In this document: positions 2,923-18,787 of the stretch, piece by piece | How positions within the stretch are numbered: position 1 is the first letter of the stretch | Layout: each line of letters opens with the position of its first letter | Assembly: GCF_040149665.1 (NCBI RefSeq) | Contig: NZ_JBEFLP010000001.1 | Location: 2,356,001 to 2,420,000 of the forward strand | Reading direction: 5' to 3' | Length of the DNA stretch: 64,000 nt | Origin: Sulfitobacter sp. HNIBRBA3233 | GTDB taxonomy: Bacteria; Pseudomonadota; Alphaproteobacteria; Rhodobacterales; Rhodobacteraceae | The notes under the pieces: generated by a model | Seen by the model: the letters and a program-made list of their open reading frames with translations, nothing else | What the model was told of the DNA's origin: nothing | The model's database searches: none | Made by a program: the position numbers and the translations under genes

Positions 2923-2933
2923 GTCGTTTCCTT

Positions 2934-4682: not shown

Positions 4683-4741
4683 GGTTGGTCTCCTGCGGTT
4701 GGATTTGCACGATGCTGCGCCGGGCGGGGCGCTGTTGTCTT

Positions 4742-4759
4742 GATCCTGAGCGCAGGATC
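4742..4759. promoter_or_regulatory. inverted repeat in the hyuB / AraC-regulator divergent gap
   Basis: GATCCTG-AGCG-CAGGATC, a perfect 7-bp repeat with a 4-base gap, roughly midway between the two divergent start codons (4682 and 4847). It is too short and lacks a T-run for a terminator, so an operator is the simplest reading. AraC-family proteins more often bind direct repeats, so the binder is not certain. Confidence 0.35.
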
Positions 4760-4846
4760 GTTTGTCGCTCGGCGCACTTCGGTCCGCGAAAAATCAATTG
4801 CCGCAACGCGGGTGTGCGGCTAGCCTCAGACAGCCCGAGGAGTCCC

Positions 4847-5806
4847 ATGCAGCCACCGCGCAACCCCCAGATGCACACCACTGCCCAGACGGTTGGACCG
4901 AAGCGCGCGGCCCGCTGGACCGAGATCATCGGTCAGACGTATTTCCCCCTGCACCTCGATTTTCGCGACCCGGAGCGGTTTACCGGCACCCTGCGCCACT
5001 GGTCGCTGGGCGGTGTGGCGCTGTCGCGGCTGACATCGGACGCGGTCCGCTATACCCGCCGCAAAAGCCACCTGCGCGTGGCAGAGGGAGAGGACTACCT
5101 CGTGACCATCCCGCGCCATACGCCGGTTTCCTTCCAGCAGATGGGCCGCGAGGTGACCTGTGATCCCGGCGGGTTCATCATCGAGCGGGGCGATGCGCCC
5201 TACCGCTTCAGCTACGCGCGGCCCAACGATCTGTTCGTGCTGAAGGTGACGAAGGAGGATCTGAGCGCGCGTGTCGCGAATCCGGACCGTCTATGCGCCC
5301 GCGTCTTCGATGCCACGCGCGGATCGGCGCAGCTGTTCACCTCCATGGCGGCGCTCGCGCAAGAAAGTGGCGCGGATGTGGGAGTGGCGGCACAGAACGC
5401 GCTGGGCCGACAGCTGCTTACCTTTCTGGCCTTGGCCCTGAACGAGGCGACGCCGACGGGCGAAGAGGCGATGTCGGCCGTGCGCGCGGCGCATCTGGCG
5501 CGCATCGACAGGTTCCTGCGCGACAATATCGAGGATGCGGATCTGGACCCCGACAGCATCGCGGCGCAATGCGGTATCTCGAAGCGCTATCTGCACGAAC
5601 TCTATCGCGCGTCGGGGCGTACCGTCTTGCAGCGGCTGCGCGACTACCGGCTGGCGGCGGTGCATGACGATTTGACCTCGCTGCGACAGGAGCCGCTGTC
5701 GCGCATCGCCTACCGCTACGGTTTTGCCGATCAGGCGCAGATGTCGCGCCTGTTTCGCGCCAAATACGGCACGACCCCCACCGCTGTCCGGCAGGGGTCG
5801 CGCTGA
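4847..5806 (+). CDS. AraC-family transcriptional regulator
   Basis: A 319-residue protein from ATG 4847, chosen over upstream starts because CCCGAGGAG sits 5-13 bases ahead and because the upstream frame lies opposite hyuB. The N-terminal part (about 1-200) matches the AraC-binding-like cupin domain of the type found with catabolic operons (LGGVALSRL, DYLVTIPRHTPVSFQQMGREV). The C-terminal 100 residues carry the double helix-turn-helix: DPDSIAAQCGISKRYLHELY and the second helix in PLSRIAYRYGFADQAQMSRLF, followed by the family tail GTTPTAVRQ. It probably senses a small molecule and switches the divergent hyuBA operon; that link rests on position only. Its own target sites were not defined apart from the inverted repeat in the shared gap. 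Confidence 0.88.
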   Translation: MQPPRNPQMHTTAQTVGPKRAARWTEIIGQTYFPLHLDFRDPERFTGTLRHWSLGGVALSRLTSDAVRYTRRKSHLRVAEGEDYLVTIPRHTPVSFQQMGREVTCDPGGFIIERGDAPYRFSYARPNDLFVLKVTKEDLSARVANPDRLCARVFDATRGSAQLFTSMAALAQESGADVGVAAQNALGRQLLTFLALALNEATPTGEEAMSAVRAAHLARIDRFLRDNIEDADLDPDSIAAQCGISKRYLHELYRASGRTVLQRLRDYRLAAVHDDLTSLRQEPLSRIAYRYGFADQAQMSRLFRAKYGTTPTAVRQGSR

Positions 5807-5965: not shown

Positions 5966-6889
5966 ATGTGCCGCATGATCGTCGGTCTCGCGCTCATCGC
6001 GCCGTTCTTTGTGTATATCCTCGTCGGTGTGGTGGCGGAGCGTCTGTTGCGCTTTCCCGCGGAAAGCCAGCGCTGGCTGGATGCGTTCATCTTCTACGTC
6101 GCGTTGCCAGCCCTGCTGTTCCAGTCCGTGCGCGGAATGCCCGATGATGTGGCGCGACTGCCGGCTTTTCTGGCGCTGACCACGGCAGCCACGGGCGTGA
6201 TGTTCGTGCTGGGCTGGCTGTTGGGGCGCGGCAACCCAGACGGTGACCACCGCGCTGTCTACGGTCTCGCGGCAAGCTATTCCAACATCGGCTACATGGG
6301 CCCAACGCTGACTTTCGCGGCGCTGGGGCCCGCCGCCGGTGCGCCTGCGGCCTTCATCTTCTGCGCGGACGTGCTGCTGATTTTCACCATCTGGCCCGCG
6401 ATGATCGACAGGCGTGGGTTGAGCCTGATGGGTATAGCGGCCTCGCTGCGCCGGGTCATCGCGCATCCGTTCATCATTGCCACCCTTGCGGGTTTGGGGT
6501 TCGCCGCAACGGGGCTGGAGATGCCGGGGTTTCTCGATGCGCCGCTGAACGGGTTTCGCGACGCGGCAGCACCCGCCGCGCTGTTTTCGCTGGGGCTCAC
6601 GCTGGCGCGACACCGGGCGGGCCGGCTGGATCCGCGGTTGGGCGCCTGTCTGGGCGTCAAGCTGTTGGTGCATCCCATCGTCGTTGCAGTGGCCTTCGGC
6701 GCGATTGGCGGGTTCGACCCGATCTGGGTCGCCACGGCTATCATCATGGGGGCGCTGCCCCCTGCAGCAAACGTCTATGTCATGGCGCGCGCCGAAGGCA
6801 TCTCTGTCCCGCTTGCGGCGCGCGCTGTGCTGTTCGGCACATTGCTTTCGGCACTGAGCCTTCCGGTCGTAATTGCGATGGTATCCTAG
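5966..6889 (+). CDS. AEC (auxin efflux carrier) family transporter
   Basis: A 307-residue very hydrophobic protein with about ten membrane helices in two halves, as in the AEC family that moves organic acids or related anions across the inner membrane. Family features include FFVYILVGVVAERL in helix 1, FYVALPALLFQSV in helix 2, AASYSNIGYMG in the first half and a late ALPPAANVYVMARAEG segment. Length is normal. The start at 5966 (ATGTGCCGC) could also be ATG 5975; no strong ribosome site separates them. It stands alone between the AraC regulator, 159 bases upstream, and the convergent dehydrogenase; there is no sign of an operon. Substrate unknown. Confidence 0.88.
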   Translation: MCRMIVGLALIAPFFVYILVGVVAERLLRFPAESQRWLDAFIFYVALPALLFQSVRGMPDDVARLPAFLALTTAATGVMFVLGWLLGRGNPDGDHRAVYGLAASYSNIGYMGPTLTFAALGPAAGAPAAFIFCADVLLIFTIWPAMIDRRGLSLMGIAASLRRVIAHPFIIATLAGLGFAATGLEMPGFLDAPLNGFRDAAAPAALFSLGLTLARHRAGRLDPRLGACLGVKLLVHPIVVAVAFGAIGGFDPIWVATAIIMGALPPAANVYVMARAEGISVPLAARAVLFGTLLSALSLPVVIAMVS

Positions 6890-7031: not shown

Positions 7032-7778
7032 TCACACGTGCTGGCCACCGTTCACCTCGATCTCGACGCCGGTGACGTAGGAGCTTTGTCCCGAGCAGAG
7101 GAAATAGATCGCATCGGCAACTTCCTGCGGCTGACCGAGACGCCGCATCGGCAGTGTCCGGATGATCTTGTCAGTGCCCTCGCTGAGGATACTGGTCTCC
7201 ACCTCGCCGGGTGCGATGGCGTTGACGCGCACGCCGAGCGGCCCGAAATCATGGGCCATCTCGCGGGTCAGGGCGGCGAGAGCGGCCTTTGATGTCGCAT
7301 AGGCCGCACCGGCAAAGGGATGCACGCGCGATCCCGCGATGGAAGTGACGTTGACCACGGATCCCTTCCCGCGGGAGAGTTCGTTTTGCAATCCACGTGC
7401 CAGCACCACGGAGGCGAAGAAATTCACGTGAAAAACCTCGCCCCAGACCCGCAGATCGGTGTCGAGCGTGCTGAGGCGTTCGCCCTCGGGGCCCTTGGGC
7501 GAGATGCCCGCGTTGTTGACCAGCGCATGCAGTTTATCGCCATCAAGCAGGGTGCGGATATGCTCGACCGCCTCGGTGATCTGGTTCGGCTGGCTGAGAT
7601 CGACCTGCACATGGTCCCGCGCGCCCCCCGGCCACGGGCAGGCAGGTGAAAACGGCTGGCGCGAGCAGCTGATCACACGCCAGCCTTCGCTGGCGAATTT
7701 CTTGACTGTCGCATGCCCGATGCCACGGCTGGCGCCGGTCAGCAGAAGGGTTTTTCTTTCCGGGCCGGTGTCGGTCAT
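7032..7778 (-). CDS. short-chain dehydrogenase/reductase (SDR)
   Basis: A 248-residue classical SDR. It has the nucleotide-binding TGASRGIG motif at residues 14-21, the NNAG motif, the catalytic Ser of the NVTSIAGS strand and the catalytic Y-x-x-x-K in YATSK, plus the C-terminal NGGQHV end typical of FabG-like members. It would oxidise or reduce an alcohol/carbonyl with NAD(P)H in the cytoplasm. It starts 28 bases after the end of the fused ABC ATPase and is the last gene of the peptide-transporter operon, so it probably acts on the imported compound or on a breakdown product. Specificity cannot be read from the sequence. Confidence 0.9.
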   Translation of the reverse strand: MTDTGPERKTLLLTGASRGIGHATVKKFASEGWRVISCSRQPFSPACPWPGGARDHVQVDLSQPNQITEAVEHIRTLLDGDKLHALVNNAGISPKGPEGERLSTLDTDLRVWGEVFHVNFFASVVLARGLQNELSRGKGSVVNVTSIAGSRVHPFAGAAYATSKAALAALTREMAHDFGPLGVRVNAIAPGEVETSILSEGTDKIIRTLPMRRLGQPQEVADAIYFLCSGQSSYVTGVEIEVNGGQHV

Positions 7779-7806
7779 CGGGTGTCCAACTCATAAGCGC
7801 GGGTGG

Positions 7807-9429
7807 CTATTGCGCACCCATCAAGGCCTTTTCGTATTCCTGTCCCGGGATCGCGTCCAGCAGGCTTTGCGTATAGGCGGTGTCCGGCTCGTGCAGGACC
7901 TTGGCGGTCGGCCCCACCTCGACGATCTGCCCCTTCTGCATGACGATAATCCGGTCGCAGATGCGTGCCGCGACGCGCAAATCGTGGGTGATAAAAAGCA
8001 TCGAGAGGTTCAGCCGCGTCTTCAGATCCGCCAGCAGGTCCAGCACCTGCGCCTGGATCGACACATCCAGCGCCGACACCGCCTCGTCCGCGATGATGAT
8101 CGATGGGTCGAGCGCGAGCGCGCGGGCGATGCCGATCCGCTGGCGCTGGCCGCCGGAGAATTCATGCGGGAAGCGATCCATGGCGGAGCGGTCGAGGCCG
8201 ACAAGCTCCAGCAGGTTGCGGGCCTTTTCCATCGCTTCCTCGCGGGGGGTGTCATAGGCGATCAGCCCCTCGGTCAGGATGCGCGAGACACGGGCGCGCG
8301 GATTGAGGGAGGAAAAGGGATCCTGAAAGATCATCTGCATCTTGCGGCGCTTGTCACGCAGCGCCGTGCCCTTCATCGGGGCGATGTCTTCGCCGTCGAT
8401 CTGGACGCGGCCCTTGTCGGGCTCCACCAGCCGGACGATGCAGCGCCCCACTGTGGATTTGCCCGACCCGCTTTCGCCGACGATGCCGATGGTTTCGCCC
8501 GCAAAAAGGTCAAAGGTGACATCTTGCACCGCCTTCACCACCCGCGGTTTGCCAAAGAGCGCGCCGGAACCGGTGGTGAAGGTCTTGCTCAGCCCCTCGA
8601 CCCGCAGCACGGGGGTGCCGGGGGTTTCCTCGCCGTCGGCGTGGCGGGTCAGGCGCGGGATCGCGTCGATCAGCGCGCGTGTGTAGGGGTGCTGGGGACG
8701 CAAGAGAACTTCATCCGCAGTCCCCGTCTCCACGATCTCGCCCTTCTGCATGACGATCACGCGGTCGGCGATGTCGGCGACGACGCCAAAGTCGTGGGTG
8801 ATGAAGATGACCGCCATGCCGCGCGACTGGCGCAGATCCTCGATCAGCTTGAGGATTTGCGCCTGCGTGGTGACGTCGAGCGCGGTGGTGGGTTCGTCCG
8901 CGATCAGGATGTCGGGTTCGAGCGCGAGCGCCATGGCGATCATCACGCGCTGGCGCTGGCCGCCCGACAGCTGGAAGGGATAGGCGCGGATCGCGGCCCG
9001 GGGGTCCGGAATGCCGACCTCGTCCAGCAACTCCAGCGCGCGGGCGCGGCGCTGCTGCGGGGACAGCTCGCCATGGGCCTCGAAGACCTCGGCAATCTGG
9101 GCGCCGACGCGCATCAGCGGATTGAGCGCGCTGAGCGGTTCCTGAAAGATCATCGAGAAACGCTTGCCGCGCATCCGCATCATCTCGCGCTCCGACAGGT
9201 TCAGAATCTCCTGCCCGTCGAAGGTGATGGTGCCGCCGGTGGCTTTGACGCCCTGCGGCAAAAGACCCATCACGGCGTTGGCGGACATGGATTTTCCCGA
9301 TCCGCTTTCGCCAACGATGCACAGGATCTCGCCCGGGGCGAGGTCAAAATCGATGGCCTTGGCGGCGAAGGGACGGTCGGCCCCTTCGGGCAGGGCGATG
9401 TCGAGGTTTCGGATGCTCAGCAGGCTCAT
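7807..9429 (-). CDS. ABC transporter ATP-binding protein, fused DppD-DppF type
   Basis: A 540-residue protein holding two complete ABC ATPase cassettes in one chain, the fused arrangement common for peptide-type importers in alphaproteobacteria. Cassette 1 has Walker A GESGSGKS at residues 40-47 with signature [12 protein letters not shown]; cassette 2 repeats GESGSGKS about residue 310 with signature [12 protein letters not shown], and each has a Walker B ending in DEP or DEA. The start ATG 9429 overlaps the stop of the upstream permease as ATGA (9426-9429), giving translational coupling; the longer open frame upstream is only the antisense-like reading of the permease gene. It powers the two permeases in the inner membrane for uptake of a dipeptide, oligopeptide or similar small molecule. 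Confidence 0.93.
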
Positions 9430-10265
9430 TCGGATTTCCTCGTCAGGCGCGGGTTCAATGCATCGTTCAGCCCCTCGCCGATCAGGTTGAGCGCCAGCAC
9501 GGTCAGCAGGATCGCCATGCCGGGCAGGAAGGACAGCCACCAGGCGGTGCGGATCACGGTGCGCGCGGCGCCGATCATATAGCCCCAGGACATGATGTTG
9601 GGATCGCCCAGACCCAGAAAGGACAGCGAGCTTTCCAGCAGGATCGCCTGCGCCACCATGAGCGAGGCCAGCACGATGATCGCAGGCAGGGCGTTGGGCA
9701 GCACATGGCGCAGGATGATCTGGGTATTGCCGAGGCCCTGCAGCGTTGCCGCTTCGACGAATTCGCGGGTGCGCAGGCTCAGCACCTCGCCGCGTACCAA
9801 GCGGGCGACAGGAGGCCAGGACACCACCGCGATCGCGATGATGACATAGGTCAGGCTGGGCTGGAAAATCGCCAGCAGCACGATGGCCAGTGCAAAGCTT
9901 GGGATGGTCTGGAAGAACTCGGTAAAGCGCATCAGGATATCGTCGGTCCGGCCCACGAAGTATCCCGCGAGCGCGCCCACAGGCACACCGATGGCAAGCG
10001 CCACGATGGTCGAGACGAGGCCGACCAGAAGGCTCACATAGGCGCCATGGGCAAGACCGGCCAGCACGTCGCGGCCCAGCGCATCGGTGCCAAGCCACAG
10101 GGTGTCATCGGTAAAGGGCGGCAGGAACGGGCGCTGCACCATTTTCCACGGACTTTGCGGAAAGAGAAACGGGGCGGCGATGGCGGCGGCGATCACCAGC
10201 GCGAGGATCACGAGCCCGATGACCGCACCCCTGTTATAGCGGAAGCGTTTCCAGAAATCCTTCAT
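9426..10265 (-). CDS. ABC transporter permease, DppC/OppC type
   Basis: A 279-residue inner-membrane permease with an N-terminal helix (IGLVILALVIAAAIAAPFLF) followed by the characteristic periplasmic stretch ending TLWLGTDALGRDVLAGL, which marks DppC/OppC subunits. Five further helices follow, and the cytoplasmic EAA loop reads EAATLQGLGNTQIILRHVLPN, the site that docks on the ATPase. Start 10265 overlaps the stop of the DppB-type gene by 4 bases and the stop overlaps the ATPase start, so the three are co-translated. It forms the transmembrane channel with the DppB partner. Confidence 0.93.
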   Translation of the reverse strand: MKDFWKRFRYNRGAVIGLVILALVIAAAIAAPFLFPQSPWKMVQRPFLPPFTDDTLWLGTDALGRDVLAGLAHGAYVSLLVGLVSTIVALAIGVPVGALAGYFVGRTDDILMRFTEFFQTIPSFALAIVLLAIFQPSLTYVIIAIAVVSWPPVARLVRGEVLSLRTREFVEAATLQGLGNTQIILRHVLPNALPAIIVLASLMVAQAILLESSLSFLGLGDPNIMSWGYMIGAARTVIRTAWWLSFLPGMAILLTVLALNLIGEGLNDALNPRLTRKSE

Positions 10266-11233
10266 TTGGTCAGCCTTATGCGCGGGTCGATGATGACGTA
10301 GACGACATCGGTAATCAGGTTGAACAGCAGCACCATGGCCCCCGAAATATAGAAGACACCGAGGATCACGGCATAGTCGCGCTGGGCGATCGCCTCGAAC
10401 ATCAGGCGTCCGATGCCGGGCCAGGCAAAGACGGTTTCGGTCAGGATCGCGCCACCGAAGATCTGGCCGGCCTGAAGGCCCGCCAGCGTGATCACCGGCA
10501 ACAGCGCGTTGCGCAGGATATGCCGGCGCTGGATCAGGCTGCGCTTGAGCCCCTTGGCGCGCGCAGTCTTGACGAAATCGAGCCGGCTGACCTCAAGCAT
10601 CGAAGAGCGGGTCATGCGCATGTAGATCGCTGTAAAGAACAGCCCCAGCGTGGTCGCCGGCAGGATCAGGTGCTTGGCCACGTCGAGCACATGGGCAAGG
10701 CCCGTATAGCCCGCGCCGATGGTCGAATAACCAAAGCCCGGCAGCCAGCCCAGCCAGACCGAAAACACCAGCGAGGCCATCAGCGCCACCCAGAAGAGCG
10801 GCGTGGCGTAGAACAGAAGCGCGAGCGTCGAGATGATCGTGTCGCCCCAGGATCCCTGACGGGCGGAGGCGGCGACGCCTGCAATCACGCCCAGCACCAG
10901 TGAAAGCACGAACGCCACGCCGGTCAACAGAAGGGTCGCTGGCAGCCGGTCGGCGATCAGCTCCGCGACCGGCATCTGCTGGCGGTAGGAAAAGCCGAGG
11001 TCGAGCTGCACCGCCCCCTTGAGGTAGGTCCAGAGCTGGACGTGAAGCGGTTGATCCAGTCCGAAGCGGGTGCGCAGGTCGGCGAGGAATTTCTCGTCCG
11101 CGGCGCCGGCCTCACCGGCCATGACGGCGGCGGGATCGCCCGGGGCGGCGTGGATCAGAAGGAAGTTGAAGACGAGGATGGCCAGCAGGATGAAAACCGC
11201 CTTGACCAGCCTGCCCAGAATGAATCGTAGCAC
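10262..11233 (-). CDS. ABC transporter permease, DppB/OppB type
   Basis: A 323-residue permease with six membrane helices, the DppB N-terminus (LRFILGRLVKAVFILLAIL), the periplasmic APGDPA segment and the EAA loop reading TARAKGLKRSLIQRRHILRNALLP. The open frame extends up to a GTG at 11272, but that codon sits inside a 28-base hairpin (11261-11288) between this gene and the binding-protein gene; GTG 11233 lies after the hairpin and gives the usual family N-terminus, so it is preferred. The first few residues therefore remain uncertain (336 residues with the longer start). It is second in the operon after the binding protein, and its stop overlaps the start of the DppC partner. Confidence 0.9.
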   Translation of the reverse strand: MLRFILGRLVKAVFILLAILVFNFLLIHAAPGDPAAVMAGEAGAADEKFLADLRTRFGLDQPLHVQLWTYLKGAVQLDLGFSYRQQMPVAELIADRLPATLLLTGVAFVLSLVLGVIAGVAASARQGSWGDTIISTLALLFYATPLFWVALMASLVFSVWLGWLPGFGYSTIGAGYTGLAHVLDVAKHLILPATTLGLFFTAIYMRMTRSSMLEVSRLDFVKTARAKGLKRSLIQRRHILRNALLPVITLAGLQAGQIFGGAILTETVFAWPGIGRLMFEAIAQRDYAVILGVFYISGAMVLLFNLITDVVYVIIDPRIRLTK

Positions 11234-11260
11234 GCGGTTTGCCCTGATCTTGGAATGAGG

Positions 11261-11288
11261 GGTCCGGGCCACCGCAGCGGCCCGGACC
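11261..11288 (-). terminator. intercistronic hairpin between binding-protein and permease genes
   Basis: GGTCCGGGCC - 8-base loop - GGCCCGGACC, a perfect 10-bp GC-rich stem in the gap between the binding-protein stop (11305) and the permease start. There is no T-run, so it is not a full intrinsic terminator. Hairpins in this position commonly stabilise the upstream binding-protein message or partly stop transcription so that more binding protein than permease is made; that role is inferred. Confidence 0.6.
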
Positions 11289-11304
11289 GGTAAAGCCCTG
11301 AGAC

Positions 11305-12870
11305 TTAGTCCTGGTCGATCCAGACGTCCCGGAAGCCGTCATTCACACCAAGCGCGGTATTGACCGGGTTCTTGATGTTGCAGCGGTAGATCGTCGGGAA
11401 GCCCAGTTCCAGCAGCCACAGGTTTGGCACGTCTGCGACGATGGTATCCTGGATCGTCTTGTAGGCTGCCATGCGGTCATCGGGGTTCGCCATCAGCGCC
11501 GCCTCGTCGAACATCGCGTCGATTTCGGGGTTCTGATAGTTCGACACGTTGTTCCAGGGCGAGCCCGGTTCCGCGTTGGTCGACATATAGGTCCGCGACA
11601 CGCCAAGCGCCGGATCGCCGTACTGGTAGAGGTAGGTGAAGGCCAGATCGAAGTCGCGGTCGGCGACCTTCTGGTTCCAGCCCGCCACGTCGGAGGGCAC
11701 CAGTTCCACGTTCATGCCGATCTCGGTCAGGTTCTGTTTGACCGCTTCCGCCCAGCGCTGCCAGGTCTCGCCGTAAGGCAGACCCAGAAGACGGATGGTT
11801 TCGCCGTCATAGCTCGATTCCGCCAGCAGCGCCTTGGCCTTCTCGGGGTCATAACCGATGTCGGGCGTATCGCCTGCGTAGAAGCGGGTGGAGGACGACA
11901 GCGGGCCGGTTGCGACCTTGCCCAGACCGTTCCACAGCGCGTTCTTCGCGAAATCGCGGTCCAGCGCGTGCATCATGGCCTGACGCACCTTCACGTCATC
12001 CAGTGGCTCGTTGTTCATGTTGATCCAGATCCACGACAGCGGGCCGAAGTATTCCCAGCCCTGATCGGTGATGCAGGTGTTTTCCAGCTCGCGGATGCGC
12101 GGCACGTCGAAGTTCTCTACCGACCCGCCGGGCAGCACGTCGACCTTGCCGGTCTCGTAGGCCACCGCGCGCGACGCCGCATCGGGGATCACATGGTAGT
12201 AGACCTCATCCACGTAGGGCTTGCCTTCCATGTAGTAGTCCTCGTTCTTGACGAGGTGGATGTAGGTGCCCTTGACCCATTCGTTGAACTTGAAGGGGCC
12301 GGTGCCGATGGGCGTGTTGTTGGCCGGATTGTTCACGAAATCCGTGCCTTCATAGATATGCTTGGGAACCATCGGCGCGGTGCCCTGTTCGAAGATGCCG
12401 ATGAAGGGGCCGAAGGGCTGCTTGAGGTTGAAGACAACCGTCAGATCGTCCGGCGTGTCGATGCTTTCGACCCGGTCCATGTAGGTCCGTGTGCGCGGGT
12501 TGGTCTCGCGCAGGAAGACATCCATGGTGAACTTCACATCCTCCGATGTGAACGGCTCGCCGTCGTGAAAGACGACACCCTCGCGCAGCTTGAAGGTATA
12601 GGTTTTGCCGTCCTCGGAAATCTCCCAGGATTCGGCCAGCTGCCCCTCGGGCTTGAGGTCGAAGTCATAGCGCAAAAGGCTTTCGTATATGTCGCCCGCG
12701 ACCATCTGCGTGGGGCCGTTCTGCACGATCCCCAGCATCAGGCCCGGCGGTTCCGGCTGGATCACCACGTTGAGCGTACCGCCCGATTGCGGGTCCCCGT
12801 CCTGCGCGGCCAACGGCCCAGCAAGCGTCAGGGCCGCGACGGCGGCGATGATTTTGAAATGTCTAATCAT
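11305..12870 (-). CDS. ABC transporter substrate-binding protein, dipeptide/oligopeptide (SBP family 5) type
   Basis: A 521-residue precursor starting at ATG 12870, chosen for its GGGGAAAG ribosome site and because it opens directly on a signal peptide (MIRHFKIIAAVAALTLAGPLAAQ, cleavage near AAQ-D). The mature part has SBP_bac_5 features: LAESWEISEDGKTYTFKLRE, GVVFHDGEPFTSEDVKFT, TGPFKFNEW and VKVRQAMMHALDRD. It binds the ligand in the periplasm and delivers it to the two downstream permeases. It is the first transporter gene, downstream of the GntR-type regulator on the same strand with a 108-base gap, and is separated from the permease by a hairpin. SBP family 5 members bind peptides but also opines, sugars and other amines, so the ligand is open. 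Confidence 0.92.
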   Translation of the reverse strand: MIRHFKIIAAVAALTLAGPLAAQDGDPQSGGTLNVVIQPEPPGLMLGIVQNGPTQMVAGDIYESLLRYDFDLKPEGQLAESWEISEDGKTYTFKLREGVVFHDGEPFTSEDVKFTMDVFLRETNPRTRTYMDRVESIDTPDDLTVVFNLKQPFGPFIGIFEQGTAPMVPKHIYEGTDFVNNPANNTPIGTGPFKFNEWVKGTYIHLVKNEDYYMEGKPYVDEVYYHVIPDAASRAVAYETGKVDVLPGGSVENFDVPRIRELENTCITDQGWEYFGPLSWIWINMNNEPLDDVKVRQAMMHALDRDFAKNALWNGLGKVATGPLSSSTRFYAGDTPDIGYDPEKAKALLAESSYDGETIRLLGLPYGETWQRWAEAVKQNLTEIGMNVELVPSDVAGWNQKVADRDFDLAFTYLYQYGDPALGVSRTYMSTNAEPGSPWNNVSNYQNPEIDAMFDEAALMANPDDRMAAYKTIQDTIVADVPNLWLLELGFPTIYRCNIKNPVNTALGVNDGFRDVWIDQD

Positions 12871-12978
12871 AGATCTTTCCCCGTTGTTGATGCCCGTTCG
12901 GACATTATTGCGGCTCATCGCTGAACCGTTCCTTCGATGTGCCATCCCGTTGATCGGGAATAGGCACGGCCAATCGCA

Positions 12979-13662
12979 TCAGTTTTCACCGAGCGACTGG
13001 ATATACTTGGTGATCCCTTTCATCGGTCGTTCGATATCGTCCCGCATCGCAGCTCGGGCTGCTTCCGCATCATGGGTTTCGCAGGCGGCAATTATCAGGT
13101 GATGCTGGGTCACCATTTCGTTGTGGGTCCGGGCATAGTAGCCCGAGATCAGCGGCCCGGTCCGCAGCCACAGCCGGCTGAGCACATCAAGCAGGATCGG
13201 CATGCCCGCGATTTCCGCAAGGGCGAAATGGAACTTTTGGTTCATTTCAATCGCCAGCGGCCATTTTCCCGCCGCACATGCCTCCTCGTTACGCGCCACG
13301 ATCCGCTTGAGCTGGGTGACATCCCTGGGCTGTGCCACCGCCGCGGCACCGGCGGCGGCGAGCCCTTCAAGCTCGGTCCGGATGCGCGTGATCTCGAGAT
13401 AGGCGTCGGTGGTCAGCACCGGCACGCGCACATCCCGCATGCTGCGCTGTTCCAGTGCATTATCCTGCAGCAGCCGCTGAACCGCGTCCCGCACGGGGGT
13501 GGAGCTGGTGCCCAGCGCATCGGCCAGACCACGGATCGTGATCTTCTGGTTCGGTTGCAGCTTGCCCCGGATCAGGTCCTGAGACACCCGCTCGTAAATG
13601 GCGTGACCCAGCGAATCCTTGTTCAGCTCTTTCATCTCACCCCGCGTCGGCGTCAGTGTCAT
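12979..13662 (-). CDS. GntR-family transcriptional regulator (FadR/FCD subfamily)
   Basis: A 227-residue regulator. Residues about 15-80 form the winged helix (HAIYERVSQDLIRGK, ITIRGLADALGTSSTPVRDAVQRL), and the rest is the all-helical FCD ligand domain with its metal-binding histidines (NQKFHFAL, ...HHLIIAACETHDAEAAR). ATG 13662 directly abuts a 19-bp palindrome (13664-13682) and has no ribosome site; ATG 13635 (218 residues, preceded by GGGGTGAG) is an alternative start. It lies between the transporter operon on its own strand and the divergent four-gene catabolic operon, so it is the likely repressor of both, released by a pathway acid or amine. Ligand not predictable. Confidence 0.9.
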   Translation of the reverse strand: MTLTPTRGEMKELNKDSLGHAIYERVSQDLIRGKLQPNQKITIRGLADALGTSSTPVRDAVQRLLQDNALEQRSMRDVRVPVLTTDAYLEITRIRTELEGLAAAGAAAVAQPRDVTQLKRIVARNEEACAAGKWPLAIEMNQKFHFALAEIAGMPILLDVLSRLWLRTGPLISGYYARTHNEMVTQHHLIIAACETHDAEAARAAMRDDIERPMKGITKYIQSLGEN

Positions 13663-13663
13663 T

Positions 13664-13682
13664 TTGATGCATCATGCATCAA
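13664..13682. promoter_or_regulatory. 19-bp palindrome, probable GntR operator
   Basis: TTGATGCATCATGCATCAA is a perfect 9-bp inverted repeat about one central base. It touches the start codon of the GntR-type gene and lies just upstream of the candidate promoter of the divergent catabolic operon. FCD-type GntR proteins bind short palindromes of this kind as dimers, usually to repress themselves and the adjacent operon. Only one copy was seen in this gap. Confidence 0.65.
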
Positions 13683-13687
13683 TTTCG

Positions 13688-13716
13688 TTGAAGCGGCAAA
13701 TCAAAACTGCAATAGT
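13688..13716 (+). promoter_or_regulatory. candidate sigma-70 promoter of the deacetylase operon
   Basis: TTGAAG (13688-13693), a 17-base spacer and AATAGT (13711-13716), each matching 4 of 6 consensus bases with ideal spacing. It begins 5 bases from the 19-bp palindrome, so a bound GntR dimer would sit at about -60, or would block the opposing promoter. The leader to the ATG at 13785 would be about 60 bases. Confidence 0.35.
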
Positions 13717-13784
13717 CTTCTAGGCCGCCATGTGGCGGAGGGCCCCTTGCCCGAATTTTCTACACATAGGCGGAAGGTCTGAGG

Positions 13785-14813
13785 ATGAAGGTATTTTTCG
13801 ACGCGCGTCAGCTGGGTCACGCGCCCGAGGTCTATTTCAGGCGCGGCGCGGCGATGCCCCATCAGGAGCAGCCGCAGCGCGCGGAAATCCTGCGCGACAT
13901 GCTGTTGTCCGAAGGGTTCGAGATCGACGCGCCGGGCGATCACGGCGTCGGCCCGATCAAGGCGGTGCACAACCCCGACTACGTCGATTTCCTGCCCGAT
14001 GCCTACGACCGCTTTGTCGAGAGCGCGGGCACCGAGGCGCTGGCGATTCCCACCATGCATCCGGGCGTGCGGCGCGGGAAAGTGCCGCGCGATATCCACG
14101 GCCAGCTCGGCTGGTGGATGACCGACACCTCCACGCCGCTGACGCCGGGCAGCTGGGATGCGGCCTATTGGTCGGCGCAATCGGCTATAGAGGCGACAGA
14201 GACGGTGATGGCCGGGGCGCGCGCGGCCTATGCGCTCTGCCGTCCGCCGGGGCACCACGCCATGCGCGACTGCTCCAACGGTTTTTGCTTTTTCAATAAC
14301 GCCTGCATCGCGGCGCATCATCTGACCTCGAAATACGCCAAGGTCGCGCTGATCGACGTGGATGTGCATACCGGTAACGGGTCGCTCGATATCCTCTACG
14401 AACGCGGCGACATTTTCTTCTGCTCGCTGCATCCCGATCCGTCGACCTATCCCACCTTCTTTCTCGGCCACGCGGACGAAACGGGCGCGGGCGACGGCGC
14501 CGGCAAGAAGATGAACCTTCTGCTGGAACAGGGTGCGAGCCAGGACACGGTGCTGGAAACGCTTGAGCGGGGCATCGCCGCCGCGCAGGATTTCGGCGCG
14601 GAGGCGCTGGTTGTCTCGCTGGGCTTCGACATGGCCGCCGACGATCCGCTGGCGGCGGTCAAGGTATACCCCGACGGTTTCGCCGCCATGGCCAAGGCGC
14701 TGGCCGCCATGAATCTACCCACCGTGCTGGTGCAGGAGGGCGGCTATCTCGGACCGTCGCTCGCCGACAATGGCCGCGCGTTCCTGACCACCTTCCGCGA
14801 GGCGATCCGGTGA
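13785..14813 (+). CDS. histone-deacetylase-superfamily amidohydrolase, acetylpolyamine amidohydrolase type
   Basis: A 342-residue zinc hydrolase of the arginase/deacetylase fold, the length of bacterial acetylpolyamine amidohydrolases. The catalytic His pair is at 157-158 in PPGHHAMRD; the zinc ligands are the Asp and His of IDVDVHTGNG and the Asp of SLGFDMAADDP; the FCFFNNACIAA segment is also typical. It removes an acetyl group from an N-acetylated amine in the cytoplasm. It opens a four-gene operon: its TGA overlaps the next start as GTGA. Relatives act on N-acetylpolyamines or on other N-acyl amines. Given the kinase and phospholyase-like enzyme downstream, an N-acetyl amino alcohol or N-acetyl hydroxy-amino acid is a reasonable guess. 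Confidence 0.88.
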   Translation: MKVFFDARQLGHAPEVYFRRGAAMPHQEQPQRAEILRDMLLSEGFEIDAPGDHGVGPIKAVHNPDYVDFLPDAYDRFVESAGTEALAIPTMHPGVRRGKVPRDIHGQLGWWMTDTSTPLTPGSWDAAYWSAQSAIEATETVMAGARAAYALCRPPGHHAMRDCSNGFCFFNNACIAAHHLTSKYAKVALIDVDVHTGNGSLDILYERGDIFFCSLHPDPSTYPTFFLGHADETGAGDGAGKKMNLLLEQGASQDTVLETLERGIAAAQDFGAEALVVSLGFDMAADDPLAAVKVYPDGFAAMAKALAAMNLPTVLVQEGGYLGPSLADNGRAFLTTFREAIR

Positions 14814-16372
14814 AAGATCACCCCAAAACCATGAACGGCGCGGAAAGCGTCGTGCGCAGCCTGCATGACGCCGGCGTTGACGTGTGTTTCGCCAATCCCG
14901 GTACATCCGAGATGCAGTTCGTCGATGCGCTGGACCGCACCAAGCTGATGCGCTGCGTGCTGGGACTTTTCGAAGGGGTCGTGACCGGTGCCGCCGATGG
15001 CTATGCCCGGATGGCGGGCAAACCGGCGGTGACGCTGCTGCATCTCGCCCCCGGTTTTGCCAATGCGGCAGCCAATCTGCACAACGCCCGCAAGGCGCGG
15101 GTGCCGATGGTGAACCTCGTAGGCGATCACGCCCTGCGCCACCAGAAATACGATGCCCCCCTGACCGCCGATGTGGCTGGCGCCTGCGCGCCCTTCTCGG
15201 ACTGGGTCCGGTCGGGCAAGGATGCGGACAGTTTCGCCAGCGACGCGATGGAGGCCCTGCGCGTGGCCAGCGGCAAGCCGGGGCGCGTCGCCACGTTGAT
15301 CGCCCCCGCCGACATCGGCTGGAACGAGGGCGGCCAGATGGCCCCGGCGTTGTCGCCCGACGGTCCCGTGCCGCTGGACGAAGCTGCACTGGATCAGGCC
15401 GTCGCAGCCCTGTCGCAAGGGTCATCGACGGTCATCATCGCCGGGAACGGCGTGCTGGAGGACATGACGGCAATGGCCCTCTTGCGGGGCATCGCCGACA
15501 GGTCCGGGGCGCGGATCCTCGCCCCGACCTCGAACCGGAGGGTGGAGCGGGGACAGGGGCGTTTCCCCATTGCCAAGATCCCCTACCCGATCAACGAGGC
15601 GATCGAGAGCCTTGCGCCCTTCTCCCACGCAATCCTGATCGAGACCGTGCCGCCGGTGGCCTTCTTCGCCTATCCCGAAAAGCCCAGCGTGCTGTTGCCG
15701 GAGGGTTGCGAGACCGTGACGCTAGCGGGCGTGGATGGGGACGGACCACAGGCGATTGCCGCCCTTGCCGACCGGGTTGGCGCCAAGGCGGCCACGGCAC
15801 CGGCGGTGGAGATGCCCGCGCGGCCAACGGCGGGGGCCATCACGCTCAAGAACATCGCGGCGGCGATTGCCAATGCGCTGCCCGAGGATGCCATCGTCGT
15901 GGACGAGGCGGTCAGCTGGGGCGGAGCGCTTCATGCGGCGGGCGATGTGGCGCGGCCCAATTCGTGGCTGTCGCTGACCGGTGGTTCCATCGGTATCGGC
16001 ATACCGATGTCCGCGGGTGCCGCCATCGCGCGGCCCGACCGACCGGTCATCACCCTGCAGGCAGACGGATCGGCCATGTACACGCTTCAGGGCCTCTGGA
16101 CCCAGGCGCGCGAAGGATCGAACGTGACCACGATTATTCTGGCCAACCGCGCCTACCAGATCCTGAAGGGAGAGCTGCACAATGTCGGCGCGCAACCCGG
16201 CGAGGATGCGCTCAGCATGCTGAACCTCGACCGGCCTGAGCTGGATTTCGTATCGCTGGCCAAGGGGATGGGTGTGCCGGGCCGCAGCGTCGAAGACGTG
16301 CGCGACCTCATGCAGGCGATCGAGGATGCAGCGGCAGAGCCGGGTCCCTTCCTGATCGAGGCCCTGCTATGA
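14810..16372 (+). CDS. thiamine-diphosphate enzyme, acetolactate-synthase large-subunit-like
   Basis: A 520-residue ThDP enzyme of the IlvB/benzoylformate decarboxylase superfamily, somewhat shorter than true acetolactate synthases. The N-terminal PYR domain has FANPGTSE and the activating Glu55 in LFEGVVTGAADGYARM; the C-terminal PP domain has the cofactor motif beginning ADGSAMYT and ending ILANRAYQIL. The first motif residue is Ala instead of the usual Gly. GTG 14810 overlaps the upstream stop; ATG 14831 is an alternative. No small regulatory subunit gene is nearby, so a role in branched-chain synthesis is unlikely. Decarboxylation or carboligation of a 2-oxo acid from the pathway is more likely. 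Confidence 0.85.
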   Translation: MKDHPKTMNGAESVVRSLHDAGVDVCFANPGTSEMQFVDALDRTKLMRCVLGLFEGVVTGAADGYARMAGKPAVTLLHLAPGFANAAANLHNARKARVPMVNLVGDHALRHQKYDAPLTADVAGACAPFSDWVRSGKDADSFASDAMEALRVASGKPGRVATLIAPADIGWNEGGQMAPALSPDGPVPLDEAALDQAVAALSQGSSTVIIAGNGVLEDMTAMALLRGIADRSGARILAPTSNRRVERGQGRFPIAKIPYPINEAIESLAPFSHAILIETVPPVAFFAYPEKPSVLLPEGCETVTLAGVDGDGPQAIAALADRVGAKAATAPAVEMPARPTAGAITLKNIAAAIANALPEDAIVVDEAVSWGGALHAAGDVARPNSWLSLTGGSIGIGIPMSAGAAIARPDRPVITLQADGSAMYTLQGLWTQAREGSNVTTIILANRAYQILKGELHNVGAQPGEDALSMLNLDRPELDFVSLAKGMGVPGRSVEDVRDLMQAIEDAAAEPGPFLIEALL

Positions 16373-16391
16373 TCCTGTCGACGTTGCCCTG

Positions 16392-17477
16392 ATGACCGGC
16401 GCGCCCCCTTCGCAACCGCCACGCGATACGGTGCCGTATGGTCCGTCCGATCTGCTGTCCCATGATCCGCCCGAGATATCGCTGGATCTGGCGGCGGCGC
16501 TTGCGCGGGATCTCTACGGGATCGCGGGCGCGGCGCAGAAACTGACCGCCGAGAAGGACGCGAATTTTTGCGTGACGGACAGCGCGGGCGCCCAATGGCT
16601 GCTCAAGATCACCAACGCCGCCGAAGACCCCGCCGTCACCGACATGCAGACCGCCGCGCTGCTGCATCTGGGACAGGTCGATCCGACCCTGCCGGTGCCG
16701 CATGTGCGCCTGTCGCTCGACGGACGCTCGACAGAGCGGATTACCCTGCCGACAGGACAGACGCATATCGTGCGGGTGCTGTCCTATCTGGATGGTCTTG
16801 TGCTCAGCAGTGTCACCCGCCCCGTTGCGCTGCACCGCGATATCGGGCGGCTTCTGGGCCGGCTGACGCGGGCGATGCAGGGGTTTTCGCATCCAGCGGC
16901 CGGGCATATCCTGCAATGGGACATCCAGCAGGCCCATCGGTTGCGCCCCATGCTCGACGCGGTCGGCGATGCCGATCTGCGCGGGCGCCTTACCGCCCTG
17001 ATCGACCTTTTCGAAGACGAAATTCAGCCCCGCCTGGGCAGCCTGCGCGCACAGGTCGGGCACAATGATTTCAACCCGCACAATCTGCTGGTGGACGGAC
17101 CGCAGGCAACGCGGCTGACCGGCATCATCGATTTTGGCGACATGGTGCTGACGCCGGTGGTATGCGATCTGGCAGTGGCCTGTTCCTATCAGATTGCCGA
17201 TACCGATCACCCGCTCGAAGATGTGGTGCGTCTGATTGCCGGCTATTCCGAGGTGCTGCCGCTTGAGCCCGAGGAAATCGCTATCCTGCCCGACCTCATC
17301 CGCCTGCGCCACGCCACCAGTCTGACCATCGGATCGTGGCGCGCGCGGCGCTATCCTGAAAACGCCGACTACATCCTGCGCAACGCCGCCGCGTCGCTGC
17401 GCGGGCTCAAGGCGCTGGACCGGATCGGTACAGAGGCGGCCATCACTACCCTTTCGATGGGAGAGACTTCACAATGA
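16392..17477 (+). CDS. APH-fold kinase, hydroxylysine-kinase/homoserine-kinase-like
   Basis: A 361-residue phosphotransferase of the aminoglycoside-phosphotransferase/choline-kinase fold. The catalytic loop is GHNDFNPHNLL (His224, Asp226) and the metal-binding Asp247 lies in GIIDFGDM. The N-terminal lobe shows a modified ATP site: LTAEKDANFCVTDSAGAQWLLKI, with the Lys that holds ATP near residue 69. Its stop overlaps the start of the class-III aminotransferase-fold gene as ATGA. An APH-fold kinase paired with such an enzyme matches the eukaryotic hydroxylysine kinase (AGPHD1) and phospholyase pair, and also bacterial fusions of the two. It therefore probably phosphorylates a hydroxyl of an amino alcohol or hydroxy-amino acid. 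An antibiotic-resistance role is unlikely here. Confidence 0.82.
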   Translation: MTGAPPSQPPRDTVPYGPSDLLSHDPPEISLDLAAALARDLYGIAGAAQKLTAEKDANFCVTDSAGAQWLLKITNAAEDPAVTDMQTAALLHLGQVDPTLPVPHVRLSLDGRSTERITLPTGQTHIVRVLSYLDGLVLSSVTRPVALHRDIGRLLGRLTRAMQGFSHPAAGHILQWDIQQAHRLRPMLDAVGDADLRGRLTALIDLFEDEIQPRLGSLRAQVGHNDFNPHNLLVDGPQATRLTGIIDFGDMVLTPVVCDLAVACSYQIADTDHPLEDVVRLIAGYSEVLPLEPEEIAILPDLIRLRHATSLTIGSWRARRYPENADYILRNAAASLRGLKALDRIGTEAAITTLSMGETSQ

Positions 17478-18787
17478 CAATGGTAAACGCCTATGACGGC
17501 AGCGCCGCGGCCGGTCTGAACGCCGAAGACGCCGCCCTGATCGCCCGGCGGGAACGGGCGCTGGGGCCGGCCTACCGGTTGTTCTACCGCGAACCGCTGC
17601 ACCTTGTGCGGGGCGAGGGTGTCTGGCTCTGGGACCGGGACGGCAAGCGCTATCTCGACTGTTACAACAACGTGGCCTCGGTGGGTCATTGCCATCCGCG
17701 CGTCACGGGTGCCATCGCAGAACAGATGGGCGTGCTGAACACCCACACCCGGTATTTGCACGAGGGCGTGGTCGCCTATGCCGAGCGGTTGCTGGCCACC
17801 ATGCCCGATGCGCTGGGGCATGTGATGTTCACCTGCACCGGATCCGAAGCCAATGATCTGGCTTTGCGCATCACGCGGTCGCACCTGCGCCGTCAGGGCG
17901 TGATCGTCACCAAGCTCGCCTACCATGGCCTGACCGAGGCGGTATCAGAACTCTCGCCCTCACTTGGCGAATTTGTGGATCGCGGTCCGCGTGTGCGGCT
18001 GATCCCTGCCCCCGATGCCCTGCGCGTGGCGCCTGCGGAACAGGGCGCGCGGCTCGCCGCCGATCTGGCACAGGCGATCGCGGACATGCGGCGCGACGGC
18101 ATCGAACCGGCAGCCTTTATCGTCGACACGGTCTTTTCCAGCGACGGGCTCTACCCCGATCCGGCGGGCTTCCTGAAACCTGCCGTCGATCTGATCCGCG
18201 CGGAGGGTGGCATATTCATCGCAGACGAGGTGCAGCCGGGCTTTGGCCGCACGGGCGAGGCGTTCTGGGGCTTCGAGCGGCACGGGATCGTGCCGGACAT
18301 TGTCACCATGGGAAAACCGATGGGCAACGGCTTTCCGCTGTCGGGTGTGGCCATGCGCCCGGAATTGGTGGCGGAGTTCGGAAGCAAGGCGCGGTATTTC
18401 AACACTTTCGGCGGCAATCCGGTCGCCGCCGCCGCTGGCATGGCCGTCTTGGACGTGATCAAGCAGGAAGGCTTGCAGGAAAACGCGCTTCACGTGGGCG
18501 CGTTTCTGAAGGCAGGTCTGGAAGACATTGCCAAGGGTGACGAAGGAATCGTCGATGTGCGCGGAGCGGGCCTGTTCCTCGCGGTCGAGATCGCGAGGGA
18601 CGGCGCACCGGACGCCGACCGCGCCGCCTTCGTCGTGAATCATCTGCGTCAGAACGGTGTGCTGATCAGCGCGACGGGACCGGGTGCGAACATCCTGAAA
18701 ATCCGCCCACCACTGGTGCTGAAACAGGCGGAAGCCGAAATTTTCCTCGACGCTGTTGAAGCGGCCTTTTCTGCGGACCCGATGTGA
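17474..18787 (+). CDS. class-III aminotransferase-fold PLP enzyme, possible amino-alcohol phosphate phospholyase
   Basis: A 437-residue PLP enzyme. It shows the class-III landmarks: LDCYNNVASVGHCHP, TCTGSEANDLALRI and the PLP Lys281 in TMGKPMGNGFPLSGV. The TMGKPMGNG wording is close to human ethanolamine-phosphate and 5-phosphohydroxylysine phospholyases (AGXT2L1/AGXT2L2), which eliminate phosphate and ammonia to give an aldehyde. An ordinary transaminase is the alternative. The APH-fold kinase immediately upstream, translationally coupled through an ATGA overlap, favours the phospholyase reading. GGGAGAG precedes ATG 17474; ATG 17480 is a second option. Last clear gene of the operon. Confidence 0.88.
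   Translation: MTMVNAYDGSAAAGLNAEDAALIARRERALGPAYRLFYREPLHLVRGEGVWLWDRDGKRYLDCYNNVASVGHCHPRVTGAIAEQMGVLNTHTRYLHEGVVAYAERLLATMPDALGHVMFTCTGSEANDLALRITRSHLRRQGVIVTKLAYHGLTEAVSELSPSLGEFVDRGPRVRLIPAPDALRVAPAEQGARLAADLAQAIADMRRDGIEPAAFIVDTVFSSDGLYPDPAGFLKPAVDLIRAEGGIFIADEVQPGFGRTGEAFWGFERHGIVPDIVTMGKPMGNGFPLSGVAMRPELVAEFGSKARYFNTFGGNPVAAAAGMAVLDVIKQEGLQENALHVGAFLKAGLEDIAKGDEGIVDVRGAGLFLAVEIARDGAPDADRAAFVVNHLRQNGVLISATGPGANILKIRPPLVLKQAEAEIFLDAVEAAFSADPM

What the first reader, a model, noticed from the sequence alone, without database searches (positions are those of the whole stretch)
7032..18787. Candidate undescribed amine pathway: ABC importer, SDR, deacetylase, ThDP enzyme, kinase and phospholyase-like enzyme under one GntR regulator
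Two operons diverge from a GntR/FCD regulator. One imports a peptide-type solute and ends with an SDR; the other encodes an acetylpolyamine-type deacetylase, a ThDP enzyme, an APH-fold kinase and a class-III aminotransferase-fold enzyme with the phospholyase-like TMGKPMGNG motif. Read in order: import, N-deacetylation, O-phosphorylation, phosphate-plus-ammonia elimination to an aldehyde, then SDR or ThDP processing. I know of no described pathway with this set. The order of steps is inference.
Basis: partly seen in the sequence, partly recalled or inferred. Interest (0 to 1): 0.72.

Follow-up and report, generated by a model that had tools for sequence, protein, structure and literature searches.

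The report
Amide-importing amino-alcohol breakdown gene cluster
This bacterium carries a ten-gene kit, apparently switched by one regulator, that most likely imports an amide-capped amine, uncaps it and breaks it down through a phosphorylated amino alcohol; its parts are of known kinds, but the combination and its natural food molecule were not found described in the papers searched.

Summary
Ten genes at 7032-18787 form two divergent units around a GntR/FCD regulator: SDR plus SBP_bac_5-type ABC importer; HDAC-family amidohydrolase, ThDP enzyme, APH-fold kinase, class-III aminotransferase-fold phospholyase. A 19-bp palindrome in the divergent promoter is unique in the genome; in 295 family genomes its 17-bp core occurs in three, each beside an orthologous regulator. 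Both units are co-inherited in five other loci found (G137, Tritonibacter, Pseudohalocynthiibacter, Roseovarius, Chelatococcus), all five with an M20 amidase that the window lacks. Importer and HDAC gene are the stable core (13 of 13 close orthologues in the family). Kinase plus phospholyase seem to have joined such importers more than once. Best reading: import of an N-acyl amine, amide hydrolysis to a 1,2-amino alcohol, O-phosphorylation, elimination of phosphate and ammonia to an aldehyde. SDR, kinase, aminotransferase-class enzyme and GntR match the gene classes of the aminopropanol/aminoacetone (RMM/Aut) locus, without its shell, so that arm is not new. 'Acetylpolyamine' substrate and the ThDP step are unproven. 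Substrate unknown. New variant of a known kind.

The parts
7032..7778 (-). SDR oxidoreductase (248 aa), last gene of the importer unit
   Evidence: PF13561/PF00106; 81% in G137, same place; 59-62% beside KIN/PLY in L043, L044, L165, L166; best solved relative 4x54, an SDR without a named function, 372 bits
7807..9429 (-). Fused dipeptide-type ABC ATPase (540 aa)
   Evidence: two ABC_tran and two oligo_HPY stretches
9426..10265 (-). ABC permease, OppC/DppC type
   Evidence: PF00528, OppC_N
10262..11272 (-). ABC permease, OppB/DppB type
   Evidence: PF00528
11305..12945 (-). SBP_bac_5 solute-binding protein
   Evidence: PF00496 303.8 bits; nearest solved Lmo0135 and AgaA, 168 and 161 bits
12979..13662 (-). 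GntR/FCD regulator; likely true start at 13635 (MKEL..., a start shared with G137 and G119)
   Evidence: PF00392+PF07729; sequences
13664..13682 (.). Palindromic operator-like site TTGATGCATCATGCATCAA in the divergent promoter
13785..14813 (+). HDAC-family (acetylpolyamine amidohydrolase-like) amide hydrolase, 342 aa
   Evidence: PF00850; nearest solved acetylpolyamine amidohydrolases 3men, 3q9b, 9gkz
14810..16372 (+). ThDP enzyme of family PRK07586 (520 aa)
   Evidence: NF005760 678 bits, cut-off 363; nearest solved benzoylformate decarboxylase, 132 bits
16392..17477 (+). APH-fold small-molecule kinase (361 aa) with HND...N and DFGD motifs
   Evidence: PF01636; N-terminal part of PRK06148, 290 bits, below the cut-off set for the whole fusion; motifs invariant in 8 sequences; fold hits
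17474..18787 (+). Class-III aminotransferase-fold O-phospho-amine phospholyase (437 aa)

Best explanation
A substrate-induced catabolic cluster for an N-acylated 1,2-amino alcohol (or its amino ketone). The SBP_bac_5 ABC importer brings in an amide; the HDAC-family enzyme hydrolyses it; the freed amine (if it arrives as a ketone, after the SDR has reduced the neighbouring carbonyl) is phosphorylated on the hydroxyl by the APH-fold kinase; the PLP phospholyase eliminates phosphate and ammonia to give an aldehyde. The ThDP enzyme most likely decarboxylates or cleaves the acid half, or a 2-oxo acid from it. GntR represses both units from one palindromic operator and is released by the substrate or an intermediate. 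Shown here by sequence: gene content, families, motifs, a unique conserved palindrome, co-inheritance. Inferred: order of steps, substrate class, repression, role of SDR and ThDP. The amine arm would work like the aminopropanol/aminoacetone (RMM/Aut) route without a shell; 1-amino-2-propanol or aminoacetone is the single most likely amine, at about 0.25.
For: Phospholyase. Kinase motifs intact; 6ef6, the microcompartment aminopropanol kinase, is one of five phmmer hits (E 1.6e-4) and third by fold. KIN and PLY occur together in 12 of the 12 importer loci that have either, of 65 (five of the 85 loci scanned were added by hand, four of them with KIN/PLY). Importer and HDAC within 7 kb for 13 of 13 close SBP orthologues in 295 genomes. 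In the four loci seen with this importer and KIN/PLY but no HDAC (L080, L088, L105, L167) a GatA-type amidase is present (confirmed by Pfam in L080). PLY tree: importer-linked KIN/PLY fall in several separate clades. SDR beside KIN/PLY also in L043, L044, L135, L165, L166. Unique conserved palindrome. RMM/Aut gene set and its induction by amino-2-propanol through GntR.
Against: Kinase similarity to 6ef6 is weak; an AAC/APH protein ranks first by sequence and homoserine kinase 2ppq first by fold. No aminopropanol dehydrogenase is named among solved relatives of the SDR at E 1e-30. No BMC shell in the genome; no aldehyde dehydrogenase among 20 ORFs scanned. KIN/PLY lie beside only 2 of 13 close importer orthologues in the family, and 18 of 18 other separate KIN/PLY loci fetched from the family have no HDAC and no close SBP in the fetched stretch. 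The same importer type goes with a transaminase elsewhere, and 7 of 36 loci with SBP of at least 56% identity have no HDAC within 10 kb. The palindrome is absent (3 mismatches or fewer) from other loci with a related GntR: L044, L106, L110, L114, L166. No substrate is shown.
Confidence: 0.55

Rival explanations
1. Hydroxylysine route: the importer takes up N-acetyl-hydroxylysine or hydroxylysine peptides, HDAC/amidases free 5-hydroxylysine, and kinase plus phospholyase act as bacterial HYKK and PHYKPL, giving 2-aminoadipate semialdehyde.
For: Peptide-type importer; an HDAC family that can deacetylate lysine (PMC11532494 section 16); M20 amidases in sister loci; the phospholyase family includes a 5-phosphohydroxylysine enzyme (a reference title in PMC8154272).
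Against: No aldehyde dehydrogenase or other lysine-catabolism family among the 20 ORFs scanned; related KIN/PLY units go with other importer types and, in two plasmids, a diol dehydratase, which do not suggest lysine.
Confidence: 0.15
2. Two unrelated modules: an acetylpolyamine (or other amide) importer-deacetylase system and a KIN/PLY module that sits beside it without sharing a pathway.
For: KIN/PLY is absent beside 11 of 13 close importer orthologues and is a separate two-gene module elsewhere.
Against: HDAC, ThDP, KIN, PLY are one tight operon with overlaps and a shared promoter site, and importer-linked KIN/PLY stand in several clades of the tree.
Confidence: 0.2
3. Acetylated polyamine catabolism: HDAC frees a polyamine and the rest handles hydroxy-polyamines such as 2-hydroxyputrescine. 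This overlaps with the best explanation, of which it is a special case.
For: Nearest solved HDAC relatives are acetylpolyamine amidohydrolases; RPPGHH and EGGY motifs kept.
Against: Glu106 of the M. ramosa enzyme is His here and PIS is PLA; dipeptide-type importer; no polyamine family among the ten flanking ORFs scanned. His106 alone does not exclude it, since PsApaH has it.
Confidence: 0.1
4. The kinase is a drug-inactivating APH and the cluster a detoxification system.
For: APH fold; fold hits include amicoumacin and aminoglycoside kinases.
Against: Paired with a phospholyase gene in 12 of 12 importer loci; best family PRK06148 is a kinase-phospholyase fusion; importer and binding protein point to uptake for growth.
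Confidence: 0.03

Closest known systems
RMM / Aaum / Aut aminopropanol-aminoacetone microcompartment locus (Rhodococcus, Mycobacterium)
   Same: SDR, APH-fold phosphotransferase, class-III aminotransferase-annotated enzyme and GntR regulator in one locus; kinase shares the fold of 6ef6. Two related KIN/PLY loci, L039 and L040, add a B12 diol dehydratase, as RMM2 does; a third of the same clade, L046, has none.
   Different: No shell genes in the genome, no aldehyde dehydrogenase among the ORFs scanned, no GabP-type permease; instead an ABC importer, HDAC amidase and ThDP enzyme.
Ethanolamine-phosphate / 5-phosphohydroxylysine phospholyases (5g4i, ETNPPL 6tor)
   Same: Highest similarity of all solved proteins, GKPMGNG motif
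   Different: Substrate unknown; a kinase gene precedes it in the same operon
PRK06148 / PRK06149 kinase-aminotransferase fusion proteins
   Same: Kinase matches the N-terminal, phospholyase the C-terminal part; a fused copy exists elsewhere in this genome (G000:C3)
   Different: Here two separate genes, without the middle part of the fusion
Bacterial acetylpolyamine amidohydrolases (deacylase cluster 4 of PMC11532494)
   Same: Nearest solved relatives; RPPGHH and EGGY motifs; His106 as in PsApaH
   Different: PLA instead of PIS; encoded in an uptake and catabolism operon with a kinase and phospholyase

Membership tests
O-phospho-amine phospholyase (ETNPPL/PHYKPL/5g4i) | Closer to known phospholyases than to any solved transaminase | tested here: met
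   363 and 338 bits against 180 for the next
O-phospho-amine phospholyase (ETNPPL/PHYKPL/5g4i) | GKPMGNG motif as in both solved phospholyases | tested here: met
   30 of 30 distinct homologues under 42% identity lack GKPMG[NA]G
O-phospho-amine phospholyase (ETNPPL/PHYKPL/5g4i) | Eliminates phosphate and ammonia, no transamination | not testable with these tools
   needs purified enzyme
RMM/Aut aminopropanol locus | SDR + APH phosphotransferase + class-III enzyme + GntR together | tested here: met
RMM/Aut aminopropanol locus | BMC shell proteins | tested here: not met
   PF00936: 0 in own genome; control rings in 2 of 14 genomes
RMM/Aut aminopropanol locus | CoA-acylating aldehyde dehydrogenase in the locus | tested here: not met
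   none among the ten cluster genes and ten flanking ORFs scanned; the rest of the genome was not searched for it
RMM/Aut aminopropanol locus | Kinase orthologous to aminopropanol kinase 6ef6 | tested here: inconclusive
   phmmer E 1.6e-4, rank 2 of 5; fold rank 3, TM 0.70 by query
RMM/Aut aminopropanol locus | SDR is aminopropanol dehydrogenase | tested here: inconclusive
   only 4x54 and 2p68 at E 1e-30, neither so named
Acetylpolyamine amidohydrolase (cluster 4) | RPPGHH and EGGY motifs | tested here: met
   P0008; motifs
Acetylpolyamine amidohydrolase (cluster 4) | PIS motif | tested here: not met
   PLA in the aligned place
Acetylpolyamine amidohydrolase (cluster 4) | Glu106 at the end of the L2 loop, as in the M. 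ramosa enzyme | tested here: not met
   His, as in the active PsApaH
Acetylpolyamine amidohydrolase (cluster 4) | Deacetylates polyamines | not testable with these tools
   needs assay
PRK07586 ThDP enzymes ('acetolactate synthase large subunit') | Curated score cut-off | tested here: met
   678 against 363 bits
PRK07586 ThDP enzymes ('acetolactate synthase large subunit') | Acetolactate synthase activity | not testable with these tools
   nearest solved protein is benzoylformate decarboxylase; five of six plasmid relatives opened lie in clusters without HDAC
Hydroxylysine kinase/phospholyase route | Aminoadipate-semialdehyde follow-up genes beside it | tested here: not met
   none among 20 ORFs scanned; the rest of the genome was not searched

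The most novel reading that the evidence does not exclude
A large, undescribed superfamily of importer-deacetylase ('HDAC-ABC') catabolic clusters in Alpha-, Beta- and Gammaproteobacteria degrades widespread N-acylated amines. A core (SBP_bac_5 importer + HDAC amidase) carries exchangeable arms: amine arm = transaminase or kinase + phospholyase, acid arm = ThDP enzyme or class II aldolase + GhrA-like dehydrogenase. The window is the kinase-phospholyase/ThDP version, acting on an N-acyl amino alcohol not yet recognised as a bacterial nutrient, and it gives HDAC-family enzymes a role as nutrient-salvage amidases.
Probability: 0.35. Interest if true: 0.62.

Novelty: new variant of a known kind. 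Interest (0 to 1): 0.45.

Why it matters
Thousands of bacterial HDAC-family proteins are uncharacterised (abstract of PMC11532494, listing). Here the HDAC gene stands beside one importer type in 46 of 65 loci from three proteobacterial classes, which makes a substrate findable through the binding protein and the GntR site. It also carries the kinase-phospholyase chemistry of the aminopropanol microcompartment into operons without a shell, some on plasmids, and predicts what class of molecule (a vicinal amino alcohol behind an amide) such bacteria feed on.

Tried and rejected
Amidase-kinase fusion in L088: the 753-aa ORF has only the APH domain, so no fusion. Transaminase and KIN/PLY as strict alternatives: rejected, they co-occur in 6 of 65 loci (Fisher p 0.33). 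Ectoine, because Chelatococcus has eut/doe genes next door: rejected as general; in 84 other sequences four single weak-to-moderate hits to EutB, EutC, DoeA and DoeB lay in four different loci, never two together. SBP relatives in the PDB did not point to one ligand. The PLY model was poor (pLDDT 64) and was not used. Phage origin: no kinase match in 50,697 phage records. Diol dehydratase as a mark of the whole L039/L040/L046 clade: rejected, L046 lacks it. Literature: ten searches; no title or abstract opening in the listings described this combination, but the listings are ranked extracts. Papers opened: PMC8154272, PMC4784309, PMC4207490, PMC8007038, PMC6787980 as passages only; PMC11532494 and PMC6620236 as passages and one section each (16 and 14). 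Amino alcohol kinase and O-phosphate phospho-lyase of the 1970s literature are recalled, from no call.

Limits of the counts: the mutual exclusion of ThDP and aldolase/GhrA (0 shared among 46 HDAC loci, 21 against 12, p 1.4e-4; 1 shared, L108, among all 65, p 0.013) is not corrected for relatedness. Nine of the 12 ThDP loci have the window's family (PRK07586) and three another (PRK08199 type), counted together; five of the 85 loci were added by hand (window, L047, L048, L049, L135). Twenty loci shorter than 18 kb were left out.
Full report
1. Observation. Corrections: the ATPase is a 540-aa DppD-DppF fusion at 7807-9429, and the GntR protein probably starts at 13635. Both units are tightly packed, with 4-bp overlaps at four junctions. 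The flanks look separate: hydantoinase A/B, AraC regulator and a PF03547 transporter on one side, PfkB kinase, a malic-enzyme/PTA protein, a glycosyltransferase and MutS on the other.

2. One regulator. The divergent promoter holds TTGATGCATCATGCATCAA at 13664-13682, the only site in the 3.9-Mb genome. The perfect 17-bp core lies in the corresponding promoter of G137 (L135), Tritonibacter (L047) and Pseudohalocynthiibacter (L055); with one mismatch it lies before the GntR of Marivita (L060), with two before the GntR of an Azospirillum KIN/PLY unit (L045), with three in Roseovarius L056 and Chelatococcus L048, and perfect upstream of the binding-protein gene of an SDR-KIN-PLY unit on an E. coli plasmid (L043). 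In 2.22 Mb of fetched loci there were 6 sites with at most 2 mismatches; up to 40 palindromes with shuffled arms gave a mean of 0.1, largest 1; at 3 mismatches there were 11 sites, without a control. Among 295 family genomes the perfect core occurs in three, G000, G137 and G119, each beside an orthologous GntR; in G119 the other neighbour is a transaminase gene. In 385 genomes of the class the 19-mer was found only in G000 (the site of G137 differs at one outer base). Other loci with a related GntR lack the site at 3 mismatches or fewer: L106, L110, L114, L044, L166. Binding by this GntR is inferred, not shown.

3. Co-inheritance. G137 (L135) has the complete set with the SDR at 81% and an M20 gene (ArgE/DapE type, 80% to that of L047) between ThDP and kinase. 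Tritonibacter L047, Pseudohalocynthiibacter L055 and Roseovarius L056 have importer, HDAC, ThDP, the same M20, KIN, PLY; no SDR of this type was seen in their fetched stretches, and that of L047 ends at the ATPase. Chelatococcus L048 has importer, HDAC, ThDP, GntR, KIN, PLY in one direction with another M20 type. The window has no M20 between ThDP (ends 16372) and kinase (starts 16392); the nearest in the genome is 51% identical, on another contig. In the family, SBP orthologues of 61% or more number 13 in 295 genomes and all 13 have an HDAC gene within 7 kb; of 9 weaker ones (42-51%) 3 have (HDAC cut-off E 1e-60). Only 2 of the 13 have KIN beside them. In the wider scan 29 of 36 loci with SBP of at least 56% have HDAC.

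4. A modular superfamily. With five loci added by hand, 65 of 85 had at least 18 kb. Of these 46 have HDAC within 10 kb of the SBP; 12 have KIN and all 12 have PLY; class II aldolase and GhrA-like dehydrogenase are together in 20 of the 22 loci that have either; among the 46 HDAC loci 21 have aldolase/GhrA, 12 a ThDP enzyme (9 of the window's family, 3 of another), none both; among all 65 one has both. 44 of 65 have an M20 or GatA-type amide hydrolase. Transaminase and PLY co-occur in 6, so they are not exclusive. In L080, L088, L105 and Thioclava L167 a GatA-type amidase is present and HDAC was not seen. In the PLY tree (42 rows, FastTree, unrooted) the window, L135, L047, L055, L056 and the plasmid loci L039, L040, L046 form one clade (1.000); L048 with L045 (0.922), L071/L073/L102 (1.000) and a clade with L080, L088, L105, L164, L167 (0.928) stand elsewhere. 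Amide importers thus seem to have joined with this kinase-phospholyase pair more than once, though losses could give the same picture. This is the best evidence that amide uptake and kinase-phospholyase chemistry belong to one pathway.

5. Enzymes. The phospholyase assignment rests on scores and on the motif: 37 of 37 distinct homologues of at least 50% identity have GKPMG[NA]G, 30 of 30 under 42% do not (58 and 32 hits before removal of repeats). The kinase has intact catalytic motifs (their roles are recalled); its model (pLDDT 88) is nearest in fold to homoserine kinase, amicoumacin kinase and the microcompartment aminopropanol kinase 6ef6. HDAC keeps RPPGHH and EGGY, has His where M. ramosa ApaH has Glu106 (as PsApaH does) and PLA for PIS (PMC11532494 section 16). 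The ThDP enzyme is a PRK07586 member; of six ThDP contexts opened from 77 plasmid records, one has HDAC (L049), five do not. The SDR is 59-62% identical to SDRs beside KIN/PLY in L043, L044, L165 and L166 and also 58-60% to SDRs in importer loci L089 and L096 that lack KIN, so it is not tied to one arm alone.

6. Known systems. PMC4207490 (passages of section 28) lists for RMM1 hydrolases, a phosphotransferase, an SDR that converts amino-2-propanol to aminoacetone and is induced by amino-2-propanol through GntR, a permease and an aminotransferase, and for RMM2 in addition a diol dehydratase. PMC6620236 section 14 describes the same locus as Aut and treats the class-III enzyme as a transaminase. 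Kinase activity on 1-amino-2-propanol is taken from a reference title and a PDB title; the paper was not held. The window has the RMM gene classes without shell and without an aldehyde dehydrogenase among the ORFs scanned, with an ABC importer, HDAC and ThDP added. It is therefore not an RMM locus, but its amine arm probably works like one.

7. Verdict. Real, coherent, co-inherited; chemistry mostly of known kinds; the combination, the importer-HDAC core and the substrate were not found described in the ten searches listed. Confidence 0.55 in the general mechanism, about 0.25 in 1-amino-2-propanol or aminoacetone as the amine.

Noticed in passing
window 844-4682 (-): Hydantoinase/oxoprolinase A and B genes with an AraC regulator (4676-5806) and a PF03547 transporter (5966-6889) lie next to the cluster; another amide or lactam hydrolase system, possibly unrelated.
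   Followed up: no
L039, L040 (Shinella, Agrobacterium plasmids) and L046 (Paracoccus plasmid): Their phospholyases group with those of the window clade. L039 and L040 have sugar-type ABC importer, SDR, GntR and B12 diol dehydratase genes, like RMM2 without shell genes in the stretch; L046 has SDR and GntR but no match to the diol dehydratase.
   Followed up: partly
L043 and L165 (E. coli and Rahnella plasmids): SDR-KIN-PLY behind ABC transporter genes, beside GABA transaminase; L043 carries the perfect palindrome upstream of the binding-protein gene. 42 Klebsiella plasmid records match the phospholyase.
   Followed up: partly
L166 (Pseudomonas shirazica plasmid): An SDR/GntR/SBP/KIN/PLY unit sits a few kb from a class 1 integron with annotated VIM-2 and aac(6')-Ib genes; described only.
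   Followed up: no
G000:C3 64638-67583 (L154): The genome also has a fused kinase-phospholyase-type protein (1043-aa frame), a likely separate route; a further phospholyase-like protein, 47% identical, lies at G000:C1:360534-361808.
   Followed up: no
L050, L051, L052: PRK07586-like ThDP enzymes sit in a conserved cluster with CoA transferases, 2-hydroxyacid dehydrogenase, class II aldolase, FGGY kinase and a molybdopterin oxidoreductase, another pathway of unknown substrate.
   Followed up: no
L049, L101 (Azospirillum): Importer-HDAC-ThDP loci without KIN/PLY but with two M20 amidases; L049 also has a ketopantoate-reductase-like gene and a beta-keto acid cleavage enzyme, a hint at the acid half of the substrate.
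   Followed up: partly
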